From: Dysgonamonadaceae bacterium
Lineage (GTDB): Bacteria > Bacteroidota > Bacteroidia > Bacteroidales > Azobacteroidaceae
NCBI GenBank assembly: GCA_031257875.1
Contig: JAIRNV010000161.1
Coordinates: 1 to 41,472 of the forward strand
Direction of reading: 5' to 3'
DNA: 41,472 bases
Shown here: piece after piece, positions 1,735 to 29,302 of the stretch
Numbering within the stretch: position 1 is the stretch's first letter
Layout: each line of letters begins with the position of its first letter
Position numbers and translations under genes: made by a program
Notes under the pieces: generated by a model
The model's database searches: none
What the model was told of the DNA's origin: nothing
The model's input: the letters and a program-made list of their open reading frames with translations, nothing else

Positions 1735-4410
1735 ATGAAAACTCAATTCTTTAAAAAAAACAAACTCCCTCCCCTTGGGGGAGGGCTGGGGTGGGGCTTG
1801 CTACTCTTTTTGTGTCCTGTGGCATTATCGGCGCAGAACGGCGTAACCGTGACGAACCTTGTGCTGGACGCCGGGACGGTGACCTTCGACGTGAGCTGGA
1901 ATAAGAACACCATGCCTGTGGAGGTGTGGAGCGACTCGGTGTGGGTGTTTGTGGATTACAACAACAATGGCAAGATGGAGCGACTGCCGCTGTTGCCGGG
2001 CGCCACGTTAACCGCCACCTCGGCGCCGGGAAGCGCTGCCGTAATTCAATATTCCGGCAACAATAAAGGCGTGTGGGTGGTTGGCAATGCCCGCACCGCA
2101 GGTACGTTCAGCGCCACCGTAAGGGCGGGTTTCAAACCCGCCCTTACAGGTGGCGCGTGCGTCTATGCCTCGAACTACCCGCCGGTGGCGGAATATACTT
2201 CTCCCACGCAACTTGTGTTCACCGGAACGCCGCCGTATGATATTGTACTTAAACATACCGGGGGCGGTACTGTTGTGACCCAGTCGGGCAGCAATTTTTA
2301 TGTGCCGGCGAGTTACACGGTGGAGTCATTTACCGATAAGACCGGCGCGCCGGGTACTTTCACTTGTATACTACCCACCATCAGCGCCCATCCCACGGTG
2401 TCCACTTCTATCTGTTCGGGTGGTACGGTGAGTTTAAGTGTAACGGCGAGCAGCGCCGCCACCTATCAGTGGAAGAAGAACGGCAACAATATAACAAACG
2501 AAGGCACCGGCTACACGTCGGCCAATTACACGACTGCGGCCTTGGGCGCCAATGCGACTTATTCGGTGGTGGTGAGCAATGGGCTCAGCGCCTGTTCGGC
2601 CACCTCGAGCGATGCGTTGGTGACGGTACATGCCATCCCCACCATCAACACCCATCCCGCGTCCACTTCTGCATGTTCTGCTACTACGGTGCAGTTAGGT
2701 GTGACGGCGAGCAGCGCCGCCACTTACCAATGGAAGAAGAACGGCGTCGACGTATCGGACGGCACTGGCGGCACGTCGGCCACTTACACGACTGCGGCCT
2801 TGGGCGCCAATGCGACTTATTCGGTGGTGGTGAGCAATGGGCTCAGCGCCTGTTCGGTCACGTCGAGTAGTGCGTTGGTGACGGTGTATGCCATCCCCAC
2901 CATCAACACCCAGCCTGTGTCCACTTCTGCATGTTCTGCTACTACGGTGCAGTTAGGAGTGACGGCTACTAATGCCACGGCTTACCAGTGGAAGAAGAAC
3001 GGCGTCGATATAACAAGCGGAGGCTCCGACTACACATCGGCCAATTACACCACGGCGGCCTTGGGCGCCAATGCGACTTATTCGGTGGTGGTGAGCAATG
3101 GGCTCAGCGCCTGTTCGGCTACCTCGAGCGATGCGCTGGTGACGGTGTATGCCAAGCCCAACATCAACACCCATCCCACGGCGTCCACTTCTGCATGTTC
3201 TGCTACTACGGTGCAGTTAGAAGTGACGGCTACTAATGCCAACCTCTATCAGTGGAGGAAGGACGGCGTCGACGTGACGGACGGCACCGGCGGCACGTCG
3301 GCCACTTACACGACTGCGGCCTTGAACGCCAATGCGACTTATTCGGTGGTGGTGAGCAATGGGCTCAGCGCCTGTTCGGCCACGTCGAATAATGCGTTGG
3401 TGACGGTGTATGCCAAGCCCGCCATCAGCGCCCATCCTGCGGCCACTTCTACGTGTTCCGGCAATACGGTGCAGTTAAGTGTGACGGCTACTAATGCCAC
3501 GGCCTATCAGTGGAAGAAGAACGGCAACAACGTGACGGACGGCTCCGGCGGCACGACCGCCAATTACACGACTGCCGCCTTGAGCGCCAATGCGACTTAC
3601 ACGGTGGTGGTGAGCAACACCCTTAGCGCCTGCTCAACGACGTCCAATAGTGCGGTGGTTTCGGTAGCGACGTGTTGCCATGCTTCTGGCGCTACCGTGA
3701 CGTTTGCTGCGTTTAACCCTTGTAGCAGTGCTGCCACTGGTGATTATTGGTACCTGACCGATACCCGGGAGTCAGGAAATAAGCAAACGTATAAAGTAAA
3801 GAAGCTGGCCGACGGTCATATTTGGATGGTGCAGGAGTTGAAGTTTGGGGACAGGTGCGATAAAACCACATTTTCGGGGTCTTCTTCCGACCAGACCGGG
3901 AAAATCACGAGCCTTACTGATACGTATTATGGGGATTGCCGCAATACGACGCAATCCGGCGCCGGGTATTTATATGATTGGGCTGGGGCGATACAGAAAT
4001 CCGGAGCCTATTATGGTAGTAGCAGTAATGTGGGTTGTTCCGGCGTTGCTGCTGGAGTGGATGGTACTAACCCTGGCGCTTGCCGAGGTATTTGTCCCGT
4101 AGGTTGGCACCTGCCCACCGGCGCCTCCGCCGGCGAGTTTCAGGCATTGCATAGTGCTATTGGAGGGTGTTCTACGAGCAATGGTGATTGTTGGGATTCG
4201 TCCTCGGCATGGGAGGGCGTGTTAGGAGGCTACTGTACCAGTAGTGGCGGGCTCTACAGTCTGGGTAGCAACGCCAACTATTGGAGTAGTACGTACGACA
4301 GTAGCACTCACGCGTACCGCCTGTACTTCCACAGTAGCAACGTGGACCCCGGTACGATCAACGGCTACAAGTTCGACGGCCGTTCAGTGCGTTGCGTCAG
4401 GAATTATTAA
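1735..4410 (+). CDS. Secreted modular protein: signal peptide, five Ig-like repeats, C-terminal FISUMP (Fibrobacter major paralogous)/C-type-lectin-like domain
   Basis: 891 aa. Hydrophobic leader MKTQFFKKNKLPPLGGGLGWGLLLFLCPVALSAQ. Repeated ..YQWKKNG..TYSVVVSNGLSACS.. units. Terminal WMVQELKFG..GYLYDWAGA..GICPVGWHLPT..NYWSSTYDSS..GRSVRCVRNY. Confidence 0.88.
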   Translation: MKTQFFKKNKLPPLGGGLGWGLLLFLCPVALSAQNGVTVTNLVLDAGTVTFDVSWNKNTMPVEVWSDSVWVFVDYNNNGKMERLPLLPGATLTATSAPGSAAVIQYSGNNKGVWVVGNARTAGTFSATVRAGFKPALTGGACVYASNYPPVAEYTSPTQLVFTGTPPYDIVLKHTGGGTVVTQSGSNFYVPASYTVESFTDKTGAPGTFTCILPTISAHPTVSTSICSGGTVSLSVTASSAATYQWKKNGNNITNEGTGYTSANYTTAALGANATYSVVVSNGLSACSATSSDALVTVHAIPTINTHPASTSACSATTVQLGVTASSAATYQWKKNGVDVSDGTGGTSATYTTAALGANATYSVVVSNGLSACSVTSSSALVTVYAIPTINTQPVSTSACSATTVQLGVTATNATAYQWKKNGVDITSGGSDYTSANYTTAALGANATYSVVVSNGLSACSATSSDALVTVYAKPNINTHPTASTSACSATTVQLEVTATNANLYQWRKDGVDVTDGTGGTSATYTTAALNANATYSVVVSNGLSACSATSNNALVTVYAKPAISAHPAATSTCSGNTVQLSVTATNATAYQWKKNGNNVTDGSGGTTANYTTAALSANATYTVVVSNTLSACSTTSNSAVVSVATCCHASGATVTFAAFNPCSSAATGDYWYLTDTRESGNKQTYKVKKLADGHIWMVQELKFGDRCDKTTFSGSSSDQTGKITSLTDTYYGDCRNTTQSGAGYLYDWAGAIQKSGAYYGSSSNVGCSGVAAGVDGTNPGACRGICPVGWHLPTGASAGEFQALHSAIGGCSTSNGDCWDSSSAWEGVLGGYCTSSGGLYSLGSNANYWSSTYDSSTHAYRLYFHSSNVDPGTINGYKFDGRSVRCVRNY
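2374..3672 (+). repeat. Five tandem Ig-like domain-coding repeats of about 258-264 bp
   Basis: Units begin at 2374, 2638, 2896, 3157 and 3418. Stretches such as AATGCGACTTATTCGGTGGTGGTGAGCAATGGGCTCAGCGCCTGTTCGG are near-identical between units. Confidence 0.88.
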
Positions 4411-4482
4411 TGGTTAATGGTTAATGGTTAATGGTTAGTGATTAATGATTAATGATTAATGATTAATGACTGGTTTTCAGGT

Positions 4483-7928: not shown

Positions 7929-8519
7929 ATGCTAAAAAGGTTTAATTTTATTTGTGTTAAAGTGTTGTTAATGGTTATTTTGGCAACTAAGTTTAGTGAT
8001 TGTAGATCTCAGGTTACACTTGGTTCAGATTATATCCTTGCTAAATACGACTATTTTGATGTAAGGGTGGTGGATGGTTTTTACGAGAAGATTATTAGAT
8101 ACGATCAACCTATGTGGGACGATAGACCAATCTACGGCGTTACTTATTATGTTTATAAATTATTTGATGATGTGATACCTCAAGTTTATGTGCAGACTAA
8201 TATGGACTTGTATTATGGATATGGAGAATATACTAAGTTAGAGTGGCGTGAGTTCTGCGATCCCCCCTGTGATTATTTAGGTTACAGCACAGGTTATTCG
8301 TCGAGTGATCCACAAGGAGGCGTAGGGAAGTCCTTTCGTGTCTCTAAATTGGCATACACCTATATTGATGAAAGTGATTATGACGAAGTGAATCCTAATA
8401 GTAGAGTGTATGACAGTCTTGGTAGATTAAGAGGAACCTGGAGTGCTAATTCTTTACAATCTGGAGAAATTGGTATAGTTGTCAACAAACTCAAGGGTTA
8501 TAAATTTATTAAGAGATAA
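7929..8519 (+). CDS. Secreted hypothetical protein, paralog A
   Basis: 196 aa with hydrophobic N-terminus; extensive similarity to 8592-9164. Confidence 0.8.
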   Translation: MLKRFNFICVKVLLMVILATKFSDCRSQVTLGSDYILAKYDYFDVRVVDGFYEKIIRYDQPMWDDRPIYGVTYYVYKLFDDVIPQVYVQTNMDLYYGYGEYTKLEWREFCDPPCDYLGYSTGYSSSDPQGGVGKSFRVSKLAYTYIDESDYDEVNPNSRVYDSLGRLRGTWSANSLQSGEIGIVVNKLKGYKFIKR

Positions 8520-8591: not shown

Positions 8592-9164
8592 ATGTTAAAA
8601 AGTTTTTATTTTATTTGTATTAAAATGTTGTTAATGGCTATTTTGGCAACTAAGTTTAGTGATTGTAGATCTCAGATTACGCTTGGTTCAGGTTACGCCC
8701 TTGCTAAATTTGACTATTTTGATATAAGGGTGGTGGATGGTTTTTACGAGAAGACTGTTGAATATGATAAAACCATCTACAATGTTACTTATTATATTTA
8801 TAAATTATTTGATGATGTAATACCTGAGGTTTATGTGTGGTCCGATTGGGATGCATTTTTTGGGAATAGTGGGTATACCAAGTTAGAGTGGGATGAATTC
8901 TATAGTCCGATCTGTGATGATTTACGTTATGTGAAAGATATAACAACGGTTCCCGAGCAAGAAGGCGTACAGATATGCTTTCATCTCTCCAAATCACCAT
9001 ATACCTATATTAATGAAATTGATTATGAAGAGGTAACCTCTAATAGTAGCGTGTATGACAGTCTTGGTAGATTAAGAGGAACCTGGAGTGCTAATTCTTT
9101 ACAGTCTGGAGAAATTGGTATAGTTGTCAACAAACTCAAAGGTTATAAATTTATTAAGAGATAA
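8592..9164 (+). CDS. Secreted hypothetical protein, paralog B
   Basis: 190 aa; tandem duplicate of 7929-8519 with conserved downstream spacer. Confidence 0.8.
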   Translation: MLKSFYFICIKMLLMAILATKFSDCRSQITLGSGYALAKFDYFDIRVVDGFYEKTVEYDKTIYNVTYYIYKLFDDVIPEVYVWSDWDAFFGNSGYTKLEWDEFYSPICDDLRYVKDITTVPEQEGVQICFHLSKSPYTYINEIDYEEVTSNSSVYDSLGRLRGTWSANSLQSGEIGIVVNKLKGYKFIKR

Positions 9165-16335: not shown

Positions 16336-16368
16336 TCACTCATAGCCTTTATAAGCATTCAGTCGTAT
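16336..16368 (-). repeat. Direct repeat, copy 1 (nfnA-like 3' end, island/nfnB border)
   Basis: tcactcatagcctttataagcattcagtcgtat; 27/33 identical to 19741-19773. Confidence 0.8.
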
Positions 16369-17100
16369 ATGATTTGTTGTTGCTGCATAAGCCGCAACTT
16401 TGTTTTTTTCGGAAAAATCGAGAATTTTCTCAGTAAACAATGGGATTTTTTTTACCATTGTTTGCTCAAATTCAATATTGTTTTTTTCTGTATGATATTC
16501 AATCTCTTTTGGTATAGCTACACCTTTCTTTAAACTTGTTTTCTGGTAATCTATTGAACGAACAGGATTTGGAATATTAAAATATTGTTGTAAAGTTTCC
16601 CAGTCATTGTTACGAATCGTTACAATATCACGCAAATAGAAACTTACCCAACTTTCACCAATTTTGAAGTTTGGAACGACTTGTTCTAATTTTTCCTGCG
16701 AAATATCTGAATATTTTTTGTCTAATTCAAAACCGATATAATTTCTACCTAACCTTTTTGCTGAAATTGCAGTTGTTCCTGTACCCGAAAATGGGTCTAA
16801 AACAATATCATTTTTATCTGTTGTCATCAAAATCAGTCTATCCATCAAGTGCAAAGGCAGCTGGCAAGGGTGCGGGTCGCGTTTTGAATTGTGTTTAATT
16901 CTATGAATATCTGTCCAAACATCAGAAATCAGGGGTCCAAAAGGGTGTAATCCGTCTTTCTTTCCGCCGTAATCTTTCCATAAATAACCTTGTTTGCGGT
17001 CGCGTTTATGTGGATGGCGGAGTTCGTATATTTTTGCACCTTTCGCTTCTTTTGTGTAAAACAAAATGCCGTAATGCCCCGGTTGCAAGGATTTTCCCAT
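16336..17100 (-). pseudogene. DNA methyltransferase (N4/N6, beta-type order), N-terminally truncated; C-terminal codons resemble the nfnA 3' end
   Basis: KNDIVLDPFSGTGTTAISAKRLGRNYIGFELDKKYSDIS is a motif X/I region, but no DPPY/SPPY motif is present N-terminally. Ends ...HIRLNAYKGYE*. Confidence 0.65.
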
Positions 17101-17108
17101 CCTTGTAT

Positions 17109-17333
17109 TTATTCATATAGGTTCTCAAACTTATTGGATAAAACATTTGGACTTATATCTCCCCCATCGGAATTAAAAGTCTCATTGTTGAACTCATCTG
17201 CAACCCAAACGTAATGCTCAATTCCTCGAATTGAGATTTTCATTGGGACTAAATGAACGCCTGTTGAAAAAATTCTCGGTTGTCGTTCTGCAAATTGATA
17301 ATCTAATAATATCTGCTCTGTTTTTAAACTCAT
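17109..17333 (-). CDS. Small hypothetical protein in R-M island
   Basis: 74 aa ORF on the same strand as its neighbours. Confidence 0.45.
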   Translation of the reverse strand: MSLKTEQILLDYQFAERQPRIFSTGVHLVPMKISIRGIEHYVWVADEFNNETFNSDGGDISPNVLSNKFENLYE

Positions 17334-17339
17334 AATTTT

Positions 17340-17906
17340 TTAATCTTTATTTGGTGCTTTATATAAACAATTCCACACACTTTGATTTTGCCATATTTCT
17401 ATAACACTATCGTGCCATTCTTCGTCGTCAGGATTTTGAATCAAGTGTTCTACTAATTTATTCAATGGTGTCGGAAATTTCAATTGAAGTTTTGGTAAAA
17501 ATTTCAAAGTTGAGCCTTTTGAAATCCGTTTTGTATATTTCATCCATTCGTTGAGATTGGCAATAAATTCGTCATCTGCCGAAAATTGCATTTGCTTTTT
17601 CAGAAATGGAAATCCTTTAACCATTACGACATAATTTTGTGGTACTAATACGAAATATATCCAATAATCTCTTTCAAAGAACAGTTTATCAATTCCGATT
17701 GTACTGCTTATAGCAATCCAATTAAAAGAATTTTGCATCGTTTTGACTTCGATTTTCCTCACTTCGCCATCTTTATTAGTTGATAATCCATTAAAACCTG
17801 ACGTTTTCTTAACAAGTTGAATATTGCAACCCTTAAAAGTTTCCACAGAGCAGGCTAAACCTACTCCTACTTTTTCTAATGCATTCGGGTGTGATATTTC
17901 TGCCAT
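17340..17906 (-). CDS. Putative restriction endonuclease-like / DUF3883-like nuclease-fold protein
   Basis: GLSTNKDGEVRKIEVKTM resembles a PD-(D/E)xK catalytic core (xIEVK); located between methyltransferase genes. Confidence 0.5.
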   Translation of the reverse strand: MAEISHPNALEKVGVGLACSVETFKGCNIQLVKKTSGFNGLSTNKDGEVRKIEVKTMQNSFNWIAISSTIGIDKLFFERDYWIYFVLVPQNYVVMVKGFPFLKKQMQFSADDEFIANLNEWMKYTKRISKGSTLKFLPKLQLKFPTPLNKLVEHLIQNPDDEEWHDSVIEIWQNQSVWNCLYKAPNKD

Positions 17907-17909
17907 ATT

Positions 17910-19169
17910 TTATGCTGCTATTTTATTGCTATCAAAACATTTATATTCATCTTTCATTGTATTTCGCATACCTTTAATGGGTTTCAGAATACTTTTAACT
18001 AATGGCAAACTGTATTTCTTTGCAGAATCAATAATCGTTTGTTCTAATCGTATTCCGCCTGTTTGGTTGGTATTTGAGCCAATAATCATTGCAAAATACT
18101 TGTCTTTTTTGAGAACACGCGAGATTTCAGCACAAACTTTGTCCATATCCGCAAAATAATTATTAAGTCGTTCGGTTTTGTTTTTTCCTTTTAGTCCAAT
18201 TAAATTTGCTTTCAATTCTTTTGTATTGTATCCCAAAAATTCAAGTTGGTCTTTGTCGTTTTCAACATAATCTATTGCAAATGAATACGGCGGTGAAGTA
18301 ATTACACAATTGATACTTTCATTTGGCAAGTCAATTTTCAACGCTTCGGAATTGCTTAAAATCGTGGTTTTACCCATTTCGCTTTGCTTGAAATAAGGAT
18401 TTTTCAAAGTTGATTTTACCGTTTCAATGTATCGCGGCAATACTTTTGCAAAAAGTTGTTCGTGATTTGAACGTACAACACGCTTTGAATATCCCAAAGC
18501 ATCTAACCAGGCAAGAAAAGCAAGGTTATACATCTTCTGTTTTTCAATATCTTTTACCTCTAATATGCGTTTCGGAACGTTGCCATGTTTGAAGAAATCG
18601 AACAGTTTTTTGTTGTCGAATGGCGTTTTTTCTAACAAATCCACATCAATTGTCAAAGATTCGTATTTCACTTTTATCATAAACTGGCAAAACAGACTGA
18701 CATCAACAGCATACGAATTAATACCCATCAAAGCCGCTTCCACATTAGCAGTCCCACTGCCCGCCATCGGGTCTAAAACTGTTTCATTTTTTTCAATGCC
18801 CAAAATATTGAATAATCCTTTTATTAGTTGTGGGTGAAATTTGCCGCGATACGGGAAAAGTCCGTGCGTGGCATAACCTGTCGAAAATTGTCCTTCTTCA
18901 AAATATGCCTGCGTTTGTGAAGAACGATTTTCGTTGATTGTCTCGTTGTAATTTGAATAAAGCAAGTAATGATTTGTCGGCTTATTGTCAATAGATTTGA
19001 CAAATGCAGAGCGTTCCAGAAGTTGCCCTTTGGTTAAGCAATTAAATTCCAAGTAAGCCATCTCAATCTCGAACATCTCATCAACGCTCGGCAAAAGTTC
19101 AATGTTTTTGCCGAAGGTTGCGGAAACGAACGAGGGGAGATTATAAAACTGCTTATTCATTTTGCCCAT
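17910..19169 (-). CDS. DNA methyltransferase
   Basis: HGLFPYRGKFHPQLIKGL, ETVLDPMAGSGTANVEAALMG, CVITSPPYSFAIDYVE. Confidence 0.9.
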   Translation of the reverse strand: MGKMNKQFYNLPSFVSATFGKNIELLPSVDEMFEIEMAYLEFNCLTKGQLLERSAFVKSIDNKPTNHYLLYSNYNETINENRSSQTQAYFEEGQFSTGYATHGLFPYRGKFHPQLIKGLFNILGIEKNETVLDPMAGSGTANVEAALMGINSYAVDVSLFCQFMIKVKYESLTIDVDLLEKTPFDNKKLFDFFKHGNVPKRILEVKDIEKQKMYNLAFLAWLDALGYSKRVVRSNHEQLFAKVLPRYIETVKSTLKNPYFKQSEMGKTTILSNSEALKIDLPNESINCVITSPPYSFAIDYVENDKDQLEFLGYNTKELKANLIGLKGKNKTERLNNYFADMDKVCAEISRVLKKDKYFAMIIGSNTNQTGGIRLEQTIIDSAKKYSLPLVKSILKPIKGMRNTMKDEYKCFDSNKIAA

Positions 19170-26134: not shown

Positions 26135-27235
26135 CTAATTTTGCCTTTGCCGCTTTTTTTCCCTCCTTCCTTCAGCAGATCTGGTAGCGTCTTTTTGTCG
26201 GCCGGCTTCCATTTCGGCTATTTCTTCTTCAAGCACCGTAATTTCTTTATTCGCTCCGGTTGTTTCCTTCGGTTTTCCTGTTATGGAAAAATCAAACTTA
26301 TAAACGCCTTCACTTAATAAAGAAACTCCAATTGTATTTCTGCCGTAAGCATCTAAATGGAGCCTTTGAACAGGTTGTCCGTCAGGAACATTCAACCTTT
26401 GTCTTAAATATTTGCCCATTTCGGCATAATGGGCAAATGAGCCAACTTGTTTTGGATATATTACATTATCAATTGTTTGATTACCAAAAAATAATCCATC
26501 CATACAAACACCGTCGTCCCATATTATTTCAATGCTATCATTGTGACGGCGCATTCTTCCCCGACCGTCAAGTTTAGTAGGATTGACCTGTTTTGGCAGG
26601 AATAATTTCGGATAATTTTTAATATCCTGTGTCCTGATTTTTATATATGAATCATTTGCATTTGTATGATTGGCAGGATTTTGTCCCCAATTTAATCCGG
26701 CTGCATTTTGAACTTCGCCATTTGGACCCAATAAAGATAACAGACATTCGGATTCTACCGTAGTTATCTGTTCAATGGTTTGTGTTGAATCTAATTCCAA
26801 ACATGAAACAGAATTGTTCAATACCTTTTGAATATATTTGTTTAAAGGCTCAAAGGTGTCATGAGTTGTTTCAGCAAGAATTTCACGGTACGGAGTTGTA
26901 AGTCCACTCTTGGAAAAATTGGCGGAACCAATGAGTGCATGAACAATTTGCCCTTTACTGCGCCACACATAGCATTTTGAATGTACCGGTAAATTTGAAT
27001 AAAAAATATTCACAGAGTCGATAGCGTTCTGAATATCAATCAATGAATTATGCAAAGGCCGTTTAATTCCTTCTTCTCCATACATCCCGTAAATTATTTT
27101 GGAATGAAAAGGAAGGTATTGTAACCGTTCAATCGGTTTTGGTCCGACATAGCCTGAAAGCACAATAAACTCATCGGATTCAAACATCTCGTGCCGGTGA
27201 AAAATAATTTCTTCTAAATTTTCAGTATATAGCAT
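26135..27235 (-). CDS. PLD-superfamily (NgoFVII-type) restriction endonuclease
   Basis: Single HxK motif VHSKCYVWRSKGQIVHALIGSANFSKSGL; adjacent to two methyltransferases. Confidence 0.75.
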   Translation of the reverse strand: MLYTENLEEIIFHRHEMFESDEFIVLSGYVGPKPIERLQYLPFHSKIIYGMYGEEGIKRPLHNSLIDIQNAIDSVNIFYSNLPVHSKCYVWRSKGQIVHALIGSANFSKSGLTTPYREILAETTHDTFEPLNKYIQKVLNNSVSCLELDSTQTIEQITTVESECLLSLLGPNGEVQNAAGLNWGQNPANHTNANDSYIKIRTQDIKNYPKLFLPKQVNPTKLDGRGRMRRHNDSIEIIWDDGVCMDGLFFGNQTIDNVIYPKQVGSFAHYAEMGKYLRQRLNVPDGQPVQRLHLDAYGRNTIGVSLLSEGVYKFDFSITGKPKETTGANKEITVLEEEIAEMEAGRQKDATRSAEGRREKKRQRQN

Positions 27236-27236
27236 A

Positions 27237-28343
27237 TTATTTATTGTTCACAAAAATAATACTATGCTCCTTTTTAGGGGCATTTGAAAATTTTTTATTA
27301 AAAGAACGGGTTATATCAGACAGATTAACACTCTCAATGCTTTGAATTTTATAATTTGAATTTTGACACATTTCAGCGATAACTTGACTCATATCAATTG
27401 TAATTCCGTCTACAATTCCATCGCCAATTATCATAACAAATATCGAATTTGGTTTAGACACTCTTGATAATTCATTCATAATCTTTGCCATAGAATCAAC
27501 ATATTCGTCCTTTGCCGCCGTAAAATCTTTAGTGTCAATGCGGTGGTGATTCCCGATTTCTTTTTGGCGAACAGGCTTGTGGTTGTAATCCATCCAAAAC
27601 ATTCTCAATTTATGGTATAAATAATAATCAAAAGTGTTGATGTATGGCGGCGAAGTCATTATGAAATCAAAATAATTATCAGCAAATTGTTTCAATTCTA
27701 TCAATGTATCTCCATTAAAAATTTTTGCTTTTGCTAAAATAGAATACTCATTCGATTTTAAGATTTCAACATAATTTAAAAGCGTTTCTATGAATAAGTT
27801 GTAAACTGTTCCATTCGGATGGTTTTTATTCTTTGCCGTATACCTGACTTCACTGTCTTGATTGGAAACTTTTACAATAATTTTTGAAAAAGCGCATAAG
27901 AGCAAATCTTTTACATTACTGTTTTCTACTAAATTAATTTTTGTTTTTAAATTTGCTAATTCTATGCAAACATTATCTTGAAACCAATGACTTCTATTTG
28001 GGAAATCGGGAATTGAAACATTCAAGGAGGCATTAGCGTTTAGCGTTCGTATTTGTTTGATTATTTTATCAACAAGTTGAATATCAGTTTCTTTGTAGTC
28101 ATTCGACTTCGCTTTTGAAATAATATAAGCGATAGGGTTCAAGTCTATTCCTACCGAATTTATCCCGTTGATAACGCTTTCCACAACAGTAGTTCCGCTT
28201 CCACAGAAAGGATCAAGAATTTCATATCCTTCCCTGCAAAACAGATTTAGATATTTGTTTACAAGCTGTGGCGTATATTTTGCAGGATAAGGATGAAATC
28301 CATGTGTAAAATAAGTTGTACTTTTTTGTTGATTATTTGTCAT
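27237..28343 (-). CDS. DNA methyltransferase
   Basis: THGFHPYPAKYTPQLVNKYL, YEILDPFCGSGTTVVESVI, FIMTSPPYINTFDYYLYHKLRMFW. Confidence 0.92.
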   Translation of the reverse strand: MTNNQQKSTTYFTHGFHPYPAKYTPQLVNKYLNLFCREGYEILDPFCGSGTTVVESVINGINSVGIDLNPIAYIISKAKSNDYKETDIQLVDKIIKQIRTLNANASLNVSIPDFPNRSHWFQDNVCIELANLKTKINLVENSNVKDLLLCAFSKIIVKVSNQDSEVRYTAKNKNHPNGTVYNLFIETLLNYVEILKSNEYSILAKAKIFNGDTLIELKQFADNYFDFIMTSPPYINTFDYYLYHKLRMFWMDYNHKPVRQKEIGNHHRIDTKDFTAAKDEYVDSMAKIMNELSRVSKPNSIFVMIIGDGIVDGITIDMSQVIAEMCQNSNYKIQSIESVNLSDITRSFNKKFSNAPKKEHSIIFVNNK

Positions 28344-29302
28344 TTGAATTTCTCTCCACTCATATTTTTTCTAAAAACTACAATAAATGAATGCCCTATA
28401 TTGAAATAATATCTTCTTGATTTATTTCCCCCTAACCGTACTAATTTTCTTTGATTTGATTGATCCCATATAATTAAATCCCACAATATCCATCCGGATT
28501 CTGTTGCAACTTTGGTCAAATCTCCATGTAAATTAATATACGGCAAACTGTTATCCAAATCACGATAATCCCTCACTACCCAAACGTTATATGCTCCCTG
28601 TTTTGCAATTCTATGTAAAGAATCAAATAGTTTTTTCATTTCCGACAAATAATCTTCATAAGATAAATTTCCCATATCTTCTTCCGAAACCGAATATGGT
28701 TTTGCCAATTTTCTACTTTGATTTTTGTATGGATTATTTTTATAATCTTTGTCGGCAAAATTATCTCTAATTTTGTTCAGCAAATTTGCGTAAGGAGGCG
28801 AAGTTAATATGAAATCAACAGAATTTCCCGACAGCAACCGTTCAATTTCTAAGGCCGAACATTGAAATATATTTCTTTGGTAATCAAAATTTTGAATCCC
28901 ATCTTTCACGTCAATCCCTTTGTTGAACAGGTTAATAAAATCCGGATTTAATTCAATGCCCAAAGAATGCCGTTTTAAGATATTTGCAGCATCCAGGGTT
29001 GTCCCGACCCCTGCGAACGGGTCTAAAACCGTGTCACCTTCTTTTGAATAAATTTCTATAAAATGTTTTGCCAAAGATAACGGAAATGCCGCCCCATGTT
29101 TTTTCCGTTTTTCTGTAATGCCGCCATTAAAAATTTGAACGCTTTTACCGTGCAGGGTCCACTCGCTACCCGTTAAGTTATTGAGGTCGTGAATACCTGC
29201 TTTTGCTGCCTTTTTCTCAACTGTTTCTTCGTTAAAAAGACGGAGCTGTTCATAGTCAGACAACAAAAGTACCTGTAACTCTTCCGGTTTGTATTGGGCC
29301 AT
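28340..29302 (-). CDS. DNA methyltransferase
   Basis: DTVLDPFAGVGTTLDAANILKRHSLGIELN, VDFILTSPPYANLLNKI; overlaps the next gene by 4 bp. Confidence 0.92.
   Translation of the reverse strand: MAQYKPEELQVLLLSDYEQLRLFNEETVEKKAAKAGIHDLNNLTGSEWTLHGKSVQIFNGGITEKRKKHGAAFPLSLAKHFIEIYSKEGDTVLDPFAGVGTTLDAANILKRHSLGIELNPDFINLFNKGIDVKDGIQNFDYQRNIFQCSALEIERLLSGNSVDFILTSPPYANLLNKIRDNFADKDYKNNPYKNQSRKLAKPYSVSEEDMGNLSYEDYLSEMKKLFDSLHRIAKQGAYNVWVVRDYRDLDNSLPYINLHGDLTKVATESGWILWDLIIWDQSNQRKLVRLGGNKSRRYYFNIGHSFIVVFRKNMSGEKFK

What the first reader, a model, noticed from the sequence alone, without database searches (positions are those of the whole stretch)
4258..4410. C-terminal end of the FISUMP adhesin looks like a diversity-generating-retroelement (DGR) variable region
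Seen: the last ~45 codons (..AAC TAT TGG AGT AGT ACG TAC GAC AGT AGC ACT CAC GCG TAC CGC CTG TAC TTC CAC AGT AGC AAC GTG GAC CCC GGT ACG ATC AAC GGC TAC AAG TTC GAC GGC CGT TCA GTG CGT TGC GTC AGG) are dominated by NNC/NNT codons (TAC, GAC, CAC, CGC, TTC, ATC, GGC, AGC, AAC). These are what random substitution of A in AAC/AAT template codons yields. They lie in surface-type positions of a C-type-lectin-like fold, followed by a conserved SVRCVR end. Knowledge: DGR targets are often CLec-fold proteins with the variable region at the very 3' end. Inference: a DGR template and RT may act from outside the window, since neither was found here.
Basis: partly seen in the sequence, partly recalled or inferred. 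Interest (0 to 1): 0.75.

Follow-up and report, generated by a model that had tools for sequence, protein, structure and literature searches.

The report
DGR-diversified adhesin tip, cassette not found
The last ~42 codons of this secreted adhesin carry the signature of a retroelement that deliberately scrambles a binding surface, and its closest relatives sit in genomes that encode that machinery, but neither the template nor the enzyme is in this organism's incomplete genome assembly.

Summary
The 3' end (4258-4383, followed by conserved 4384-4410) of an 891-aa secreted protein (signal peptide, Ig-like repeats, Fib_succ_major/FISUMP domain) is a diversity-generating-retroelement (DGR) variable region (VR).

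NNC/NNT richness alone is weak evidence; the decisive evidence is comparative. Related copies occur in four other genomes, six of them in one (G061). From window 4258 onward, silent-site divergence falls from 26-72% to 1-19% per 10-codon block while codon positions 1 and 2 stay hypervariable. Against the closest copy, position 3 differs at 2/41 codons inside versus 80/138 upstream (p=2e-10). Of 27 columns with three or more bases, 26 are at positions 1/2 and 25 include A. G061 and G062 encode Avd plus a DGR-type RT. Same-genus genomes carry complete template (TR)/VR/RT cassettes with FISUMP-type targets.

Not shown: a TR or DGR RT in this genome. The 84.7%-complete assembly has only group-II-intron-like RTs, and the exact TR of this VR subfamily was found nowhere. 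Whether the VR is still rewritten (remote target) or is a leftover, as in Treponema denticola, is open.

New member of a known kind.

The parts
1735..4410 (+). Target gene: 891-aa secreted protein with signal-peptide-like N-terminus, Ig-like repeats and C-terminal FISUMP domain
   Evidence: ORF; Pfam Ig_3, Ig_7 and Fib_succ_major; TIGR02145
2374..3617 (+). Tandem Ig-like repeats, 258-bp unit, 4.8 copies
   Evidence: Tandem Repeats Finder, 84% matches; Pfam Ig_3/Ig_7
3814..4401 (+). FISUMP (Fib_succ_major, PF09603) domain, probable C-type-lectin-like scaffold
   Evidence: PF09603 48.3 bits in six-frame search; structure model and Foldseek neighbours, fold not significant
4258..4383 (+). DGR variable region (VR): codon positions 1/2 hypervariable, third positions nearly frozen among copies
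4384..4410 (+). Conserved 3' end of the VR (SVRCVRNY + stop), position of a presumed initiation-of-mutagenic-homing sequence (inference)
   Evidence: near-identical in copies of several genomes; 9% position-1/2 divergence
4402..4469 (+). AT-rich 7-bp tandem repeat (AATGATT) overlapping and following the stop codon; similar sequence follows copies L127 and L129

Best explanation
Window 4258-4383 is the variable region of a DGR target gene. In the standard mechanism, a DGR reverse transcriptase with Avd copies a template RNA whose Asn (AAY) codons mark the variable sites, misincorporating opposite adenines; the mutated cDNA replaces the matching 3' end of the target gene, so residues on the FISUMP ligand-binding face are randomised while the scaffold (YWSST, AY.L.F, K..G, SVRCVR) is kept. 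Shown: the substitution pattern, its sharp boundary, and co-occurrence of related VRs with DGR RT+Avd in G061/G062. Inferred: that the writer is the G061/G062-type DGR, that it acts or acted in trans on a remote target here, and that the protein is an adhesin whose tip specificity is diversified. Because this assembly has no RT or TR, the target is either served by an unassembled cassette or is a leftover of a cassette that was lost or never co-acquired.
For: Against copy L127 (G061), 138 upstream codons differ at positions 1/2/3 by 36/35/80, with 49 synonymous and 53 nonsynonymous codon changes; 40 VR codons differ by 12/9/2, with 1 synonymous and 16 nonsynonymous. Position-3 Fisher p=1.7e-10. 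Position-3 divergence from the window is 5-22% in the VR versus 48-63% upstream for all seven copies compared, from four other genomes. 27 columns have three or more bases; 26 are at positions 1/2 and 25 contain A. Hypervariable columns encode K, E, Q, M or W in only 4 of 206 residues. G061 and G062 carry Avd (phrog_3206; bAvd over cut-off) next to an RT (phrog_1423) with an IGNLTSQ motif. Same-genus genomes carry bona fide cassettes with template-A mismatches of 10/10, 15/15, 17/17 and 18/18, and an order relative 22/22, several with FISUMP-type VRs aligning to the window VR. The inferred template core AACGCGTACAACCTGAACTTC occurs exactly inside the real TR of same-genus genome G025.
Against: No DGR RT, no Avd above cut-off and no TR in the host assembly. 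The exact TR of this VR subfamily was not found in G061, G062 or elsewhere, so A-specificity could not be scored against its own template. The leave-one-out test with an inferred TR is not A-specific on its own: a 'T rule' did as well as the 'A rule'. The excess of template-A mismatches against real TRs is also seen with other FISUMP C-termini, some of which may be DGR targets. No population variation data were available.
Confidence: 0.88

Rival explanations
1. Leftover: the VR was once written by a DGR, or written in another lineage and then transferred, but this organism has no DGR and the sequence is now frozen. (A sub-case of the best explanation, set against current activity.)
For: No RT/TR/Avd in the assembly. 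G259 also holds a VR copy but no match to this RT. Gene relatedness points to another lineage than the housekeeping genes. RT-less isolates with target genes are known in T. denticola (PMC4891356).
Against: About 15% of the genome is missing; the G061 cassette lies at a contig start, so such cassettes may assemble poorly; 7 of the searched same-genus genomes have DGR RTs of this family.
Confidence: 0.45
2. No DGR: paralogous adhesin tips exchange DNA by gene conversion or horizontal transfer and diverge under strong diversifying selection on the binding face.
For: Copies are shared across lineages and dispersed in G061; surface-exposed lectin-like tails are plausible targets of diversifying selection.
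Against: Selection does not explain why nearly all changes are at positions 1/2 of codons ending in C/T, why 4 of 206 residues are K/E/Q/M/W, why many columns hold three or four bases, or why position 3 differs at 2/41 codons. DGR RT+Avd are present in G061/G062.
Confidence: 0.08
3. Ordinary FISUMP C-terminus: the NNC/NNT bias is normal codon usage of a Ser/Asn/Tyr-rich tail.
For: 71% NNY is expected from the amino acids against 78% observed; other windows of the same gene reach 82%.
Against: Silent-site divergence collapses exactly at 4258 while positions 1/2 keep changing; ordinary tails would diverge most at third positions, as the upstream domain does.
Confidence: 0.04

Closest known systems
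Fib_succ_major/DUF1566 DGR targets of human-gut bacteria and Bacteroides phages (PMC4159848, PMC8143477)
   Same: Same Pfam domain at the protein C-terminus with the VR at the 3' end; the G062 RT is 37-39% identical to RTs of Bacteroides phages F2, F4 and Bacuni_F1
   Different: Chromosomal gene with an Ig-like stalk; cassette unlinked or unassembled; no match to this FISUMP domain in the phage records searched
Treponema denticola multi-target DGRs (PMC4891356)
   Same: One RT serving several dispersed VR genes; isolates with target genes but no RT/TR exist
   Different: Targets there are FGE-sulfatase/TvpA-type C-type lectins; here FISUMP with Ig repeats, shared across different bacterial lineages
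Same-genus DGR cassettes found here (G007, G010, G025, G028; loci L175-L177, L179, L180)
   Same: FISUMP-type VR, TR rich in AAY codons, same RT family (52-55% identity to the G062 RT)
   Different: VR, TR and RT are linked within about 5 kb; their TRs are only 65-78% identical to the window VR over the aligned part
Group II intron RTs in the same genome (C108, C151)
   Same: Reverse transcriptases
   Different: Maturase-type RT domains (TPQGSPLSPLLSN, YADD), no link to the VR

Membership tests
Diversity-generating retroelement (DGR), complete system | DGR-type reverse transcriptase in the genome | tested here: not met
   Only group-II-intron-like RT fragments in the 84.7%-complete own assembly. 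Met in G061/G062, which hold related VRs.
Diversity-generating retroelement (DGR), complete system | Template repeat (TR) matching the VR | tested here: not met
   No repeat longer than ~24 nt in the own assembly; exact TR of this subfamily not found in G061/G062. Related TRs exist in same-genus cassettes.
Diversity-generating retroelement (DGR), complete system | Accessory protein Avd (common, not universal) | tested here: not met
   Own genome: one bAvd match of 27.5 bits, below the 40-bit cut-off. Present beside the RT in G061/G062.
DGR target / variable region | VR mismatches concentrated at template adenines | tested here: inconclusive
   Own TR unavailable. Indirect: 25/27 multistate columns contain A, 26/27 at codon positions 1/2; tests with an inferred TR and with real TRs are not specific.
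DGR target / variable region | Sharp segment at the gene's 3' end where positions 1/2 hypervary and silent sites are conserved among copies | tested here: met
DGR target / variable region | Variable residues encoded by codons reachable from AAY (NNY) | tested here: met
   183 of 206 codons at hypervariable columns end in C or T; K/E/Q/M/W 4 of 206
DGR target / variable region | C-type-lectin-type ligand-binding fold | tested here: inconclusive
   Fib_succ_major over cut-off. Model pLDDT 73.5; best PDB neighbours are the Lcl C-terminal domain (E 0.05, prob 0.94) and 4eps (E 0.15), below significance.
Diversity-generating retroelement (DGR), complete system | Ongoing mutagenic retrohoming (population variation) | not testable with these tools
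   No reads or conspecific strains available

The most novel reading that the evidence does not exclude
DGR target genes of this subfamily move between distantly related Bacteroidales independently of the RT cassette, and their variable regions are rewritten from near-identical templates wherever a compatible DGR is met: gene bodies have diverged by about 50-60% at third positions, VRs by only about 5-22%.
Probability: 0.25. Interest if true: 0.6.

Novelty: new member of a known kind. Interest (0 to 1): 0.42.

Why it matters
It adds a chromosomal, Ig-stalked FISUMP adhesin to the known DGR targets. It also shows that a VR can be recognised without its template, from silent-site collapse plus position-1/2 hypervariation among homologues; this is useful because large surveys that need VR and RT on one contig miss remote targets (stated in PMC8144416). 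The subfamily occurs in at least five genomes, one of which has a single RT locus and six dispersed copies, so it would allow a direct test of whether targets and templates travel separately.

Tried and rejected
RTs of the own genome as the writer: rejected, they are group-II-intron type. The G000:C108 bAvd match: rejected, below cut-off; its sequence resembles an S23-type four-helix protein (own judgement). TR adjacent to the G061/G062 RT: not found; the best A-tolerant match in L125 lies in an Asn/Ser-rich low-complexity ORF. Phage origin: no match to the VR or domain in phage records or viral contigs. Codon composition as proof: too weak. A-specificity from an inferred TR and from real TRs: controls showed these tests are not specific enough to stand alone. 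The own FISUMP paralogue L006 does not end at the domain; it continues into a weakly scored secretion tail. PDB sequence search: no hit.

Full report
What is there. ORF 1735-4410 encodes an 891-aa protein with a signal-peptide-like N-terminus, tandem Ig-like domains (258-bp units, 4.8 copies, 84% matches) and a C-terminal Fib_succ_major/FISUMP domain over the curated cut-offs of both Pfam and NCBIfam. The window is a whole contig (C11) of a 2.83-Mb, 234-contig genome, 84.7% complete.

The composition argument is weak. The last 45 codons are 78% NNY, but 71% is expected from their amino acids and other parts of the gene reach 82%.

The comparative evidence is strong. A DNA search with 4240-4410 finds no second copy in the own genome. 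In two genomes reached through the protein (G061, Prevotellaceae isolate Roe453_bin10; G062, isolate Pcl387_bin112) it finds six and two copies respectively that cover most or all of the query at 71-84% identity; further copies turned up in G259 and G195. Aligned in frame, they share a fixed framework (YWSST, AY.L.F, K..G, SVRCVRNY) and differ at codon positions 1 and 2 of NNC/NNT codons. For window versus L127, the 138 upstream FISUMP codons differ at positions 1/2/3 by 36/35/80, while the 40 VR codons differ by 12/9/2; synonymous/nonsynonymous codon changes are 49/53 upstream and 1/16 in the VR (position-3 Fisher p=1.7e-10). Third-position divergence falls at codon 842 (window 4258) from 30% to 1% per 10-codon block. 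The pattern holds for all seven copies compared with the window, from four other genomes. Of 27 alignment columns with three or four bases, 26 are at positions 1/2 and 25 contain A. K, E, Q, M and W, which cannot arise from AAY codons by changing adenines alone, make up 4 of 206 residues at hypervariable columns.

The machinery. G061 and G062 each have one RVT_1 match: a ~400-aa RT with an IGNLTSQ motif directly downstream of a protein whose C-terminal half is Avd (bAvd over cut-off; phrog_3206 'Avd protein of DGR'; RT phrog_1423). Related RTs occur in 13 of 149 relatives, 7 of them in the window's own genus. Self-comparison of those loci gives template/variable pairs with mismatches almost all at template A: 10/10 (L176), 17/17 (L177), 15/15 (L179), 22/22 (L181), 18/18 (L184), 33/35 (L185) and others. 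Several of these VRs are FISUMP-type tails and align with the window VR.

What is missing. The own assembly has only group-II-intron-like RT fragments, no DGR RT at E<=1e-40, no Avd above cut-off and no TR. The exact TR of this VR subfamily was not found in G061 or G062: the G061 cassette contig begins 89 nt before avd, and the G062 cassette has no recognisable TR nearby. Hence A-specificity could not be scored against its own template. I tested substitutes. A template inferred from the G061 copies places 26 of 31 window mismatches at inferred A, but a control rule using T does as well, so this shows shared variable columns rather than A-specificity. Position-1/2 mismatches against six real TRs carry template A in 101 cases and window A in 38, versus 63 and 78 for the paired VRs, but other FISUMP tails also differ more at template A, so this too is only supportive. 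The inferred core AACGCGTACAACCTGAACTTC occurs exactly in the real TR of same-genus genome G025.

Lineage puzzle. The neighbouring trmD and dsbD match same-genus genomes at 72-76% DNA identity; the trmD protein is 83-85% identical there but only 61-62% in G061/G062. The FISUMP gene is the other way round: 60-63% protein identity in its C-terminal part to G061 copies, and only short or weak matches in the genus. Horizontal transfer of the target (inference) is the simplest reading; differential loss is not excluded. Near-frozen silent sites in the VR, against about 50-60% third-position divergence in the gene body, imply that the VRs were written from very similar templates after the gene bodies diverged.

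Structure. An AlphaFold model of the FISUMP domain (pLDDT 73.5, pTM 0.78) has as its best PDB neighbours the Legionella Lcl C-terminal domain and Bacteroides 4eps, below significance; 4eps was superimposed on the DGR protein TvpA in PMC4159848. The best viral-library hits include FISUMP proteins of uncultured phages (E=1e-6).

Mechanism and verdict. The VR is best read as a DGR variable region. Whether it is still diversified by an unassembled cassette or is a leftover is about even; T. denticola gives precedent for both remote targets and RT-less target genes (PMC4891356), and Fib_succ_major is an established DGR target domain (PMC4159848, PMC8143477, PMC8934634). It is a new member of a known kind. 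As a complete DGR system it fails the tests for RT, TR and Avd in this assembly; as a DGR target it meets two of the defining features, two are inconclusive, and none was contradicted.

Noticed in passing
window 1773-1796 and 683-706: A GC-rich repeat (CCTTGGGGGAGGGCTGGGGTGGGG) lies inside the signal-peptide coding region of the FISUMP gene (reads PPLGGGLGWG) and again at 683-706; none expected in shuffles. It looks like a small repeat element captured in a coding sequence.
   Followed up: partly
window 26135-29302 (-): NgoFVII-type restriction endonuclease (PF09565/PF20731) next to two N6/N4 DNA methylases: a type II restriction-modification system.
   Followed up: partly
window 16336-19169 (-): Second methylase cluster: a protein with a C-terminal N6_N4_Mtase part, a weak NOV_C-like protein and another methylase protein; possibly a split methylase with a candidate nuclease.
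   Followed up: partly
window 7929-8519 and 8592-9164: Two adjacent paralogous ~190-aa secreted-looking proteins without any Pfam match, with an identical C-terminal stretch (YDSLGRLRGTWSANSLQSGEIGIVVNKLKGYKFIKR).
   Followed up: no
L131 (G061:C28), same place as L046: A VR copy of the same subfamily carries an in-frame TAG inside the variable region, so this target copy looks truncated in the assembled strain.
   Followed up: no
L137 (G061:C133:26436-26575): A VR copy follows directly on the start of a FISUMP domain in another frame, apparently a target gene with an internal deletion.
   Followed up: no
L123 90-836 and L124 466-1266: Avd in this DGR type is fused to a ~120-residue N-terminal domain (LEGxFWHVYERSAF...) with no Pfam match.
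   Followed up: no
L139 and L141 (G061:C18, C111): The conserved VR 3' end (23-34 nt around TGCGTTGCGTC) lies downstream of arrays of short tandem repeats (TGTAACC..TTCCGTTACA type) instead of a FISUMP tail.
   Followed up: no
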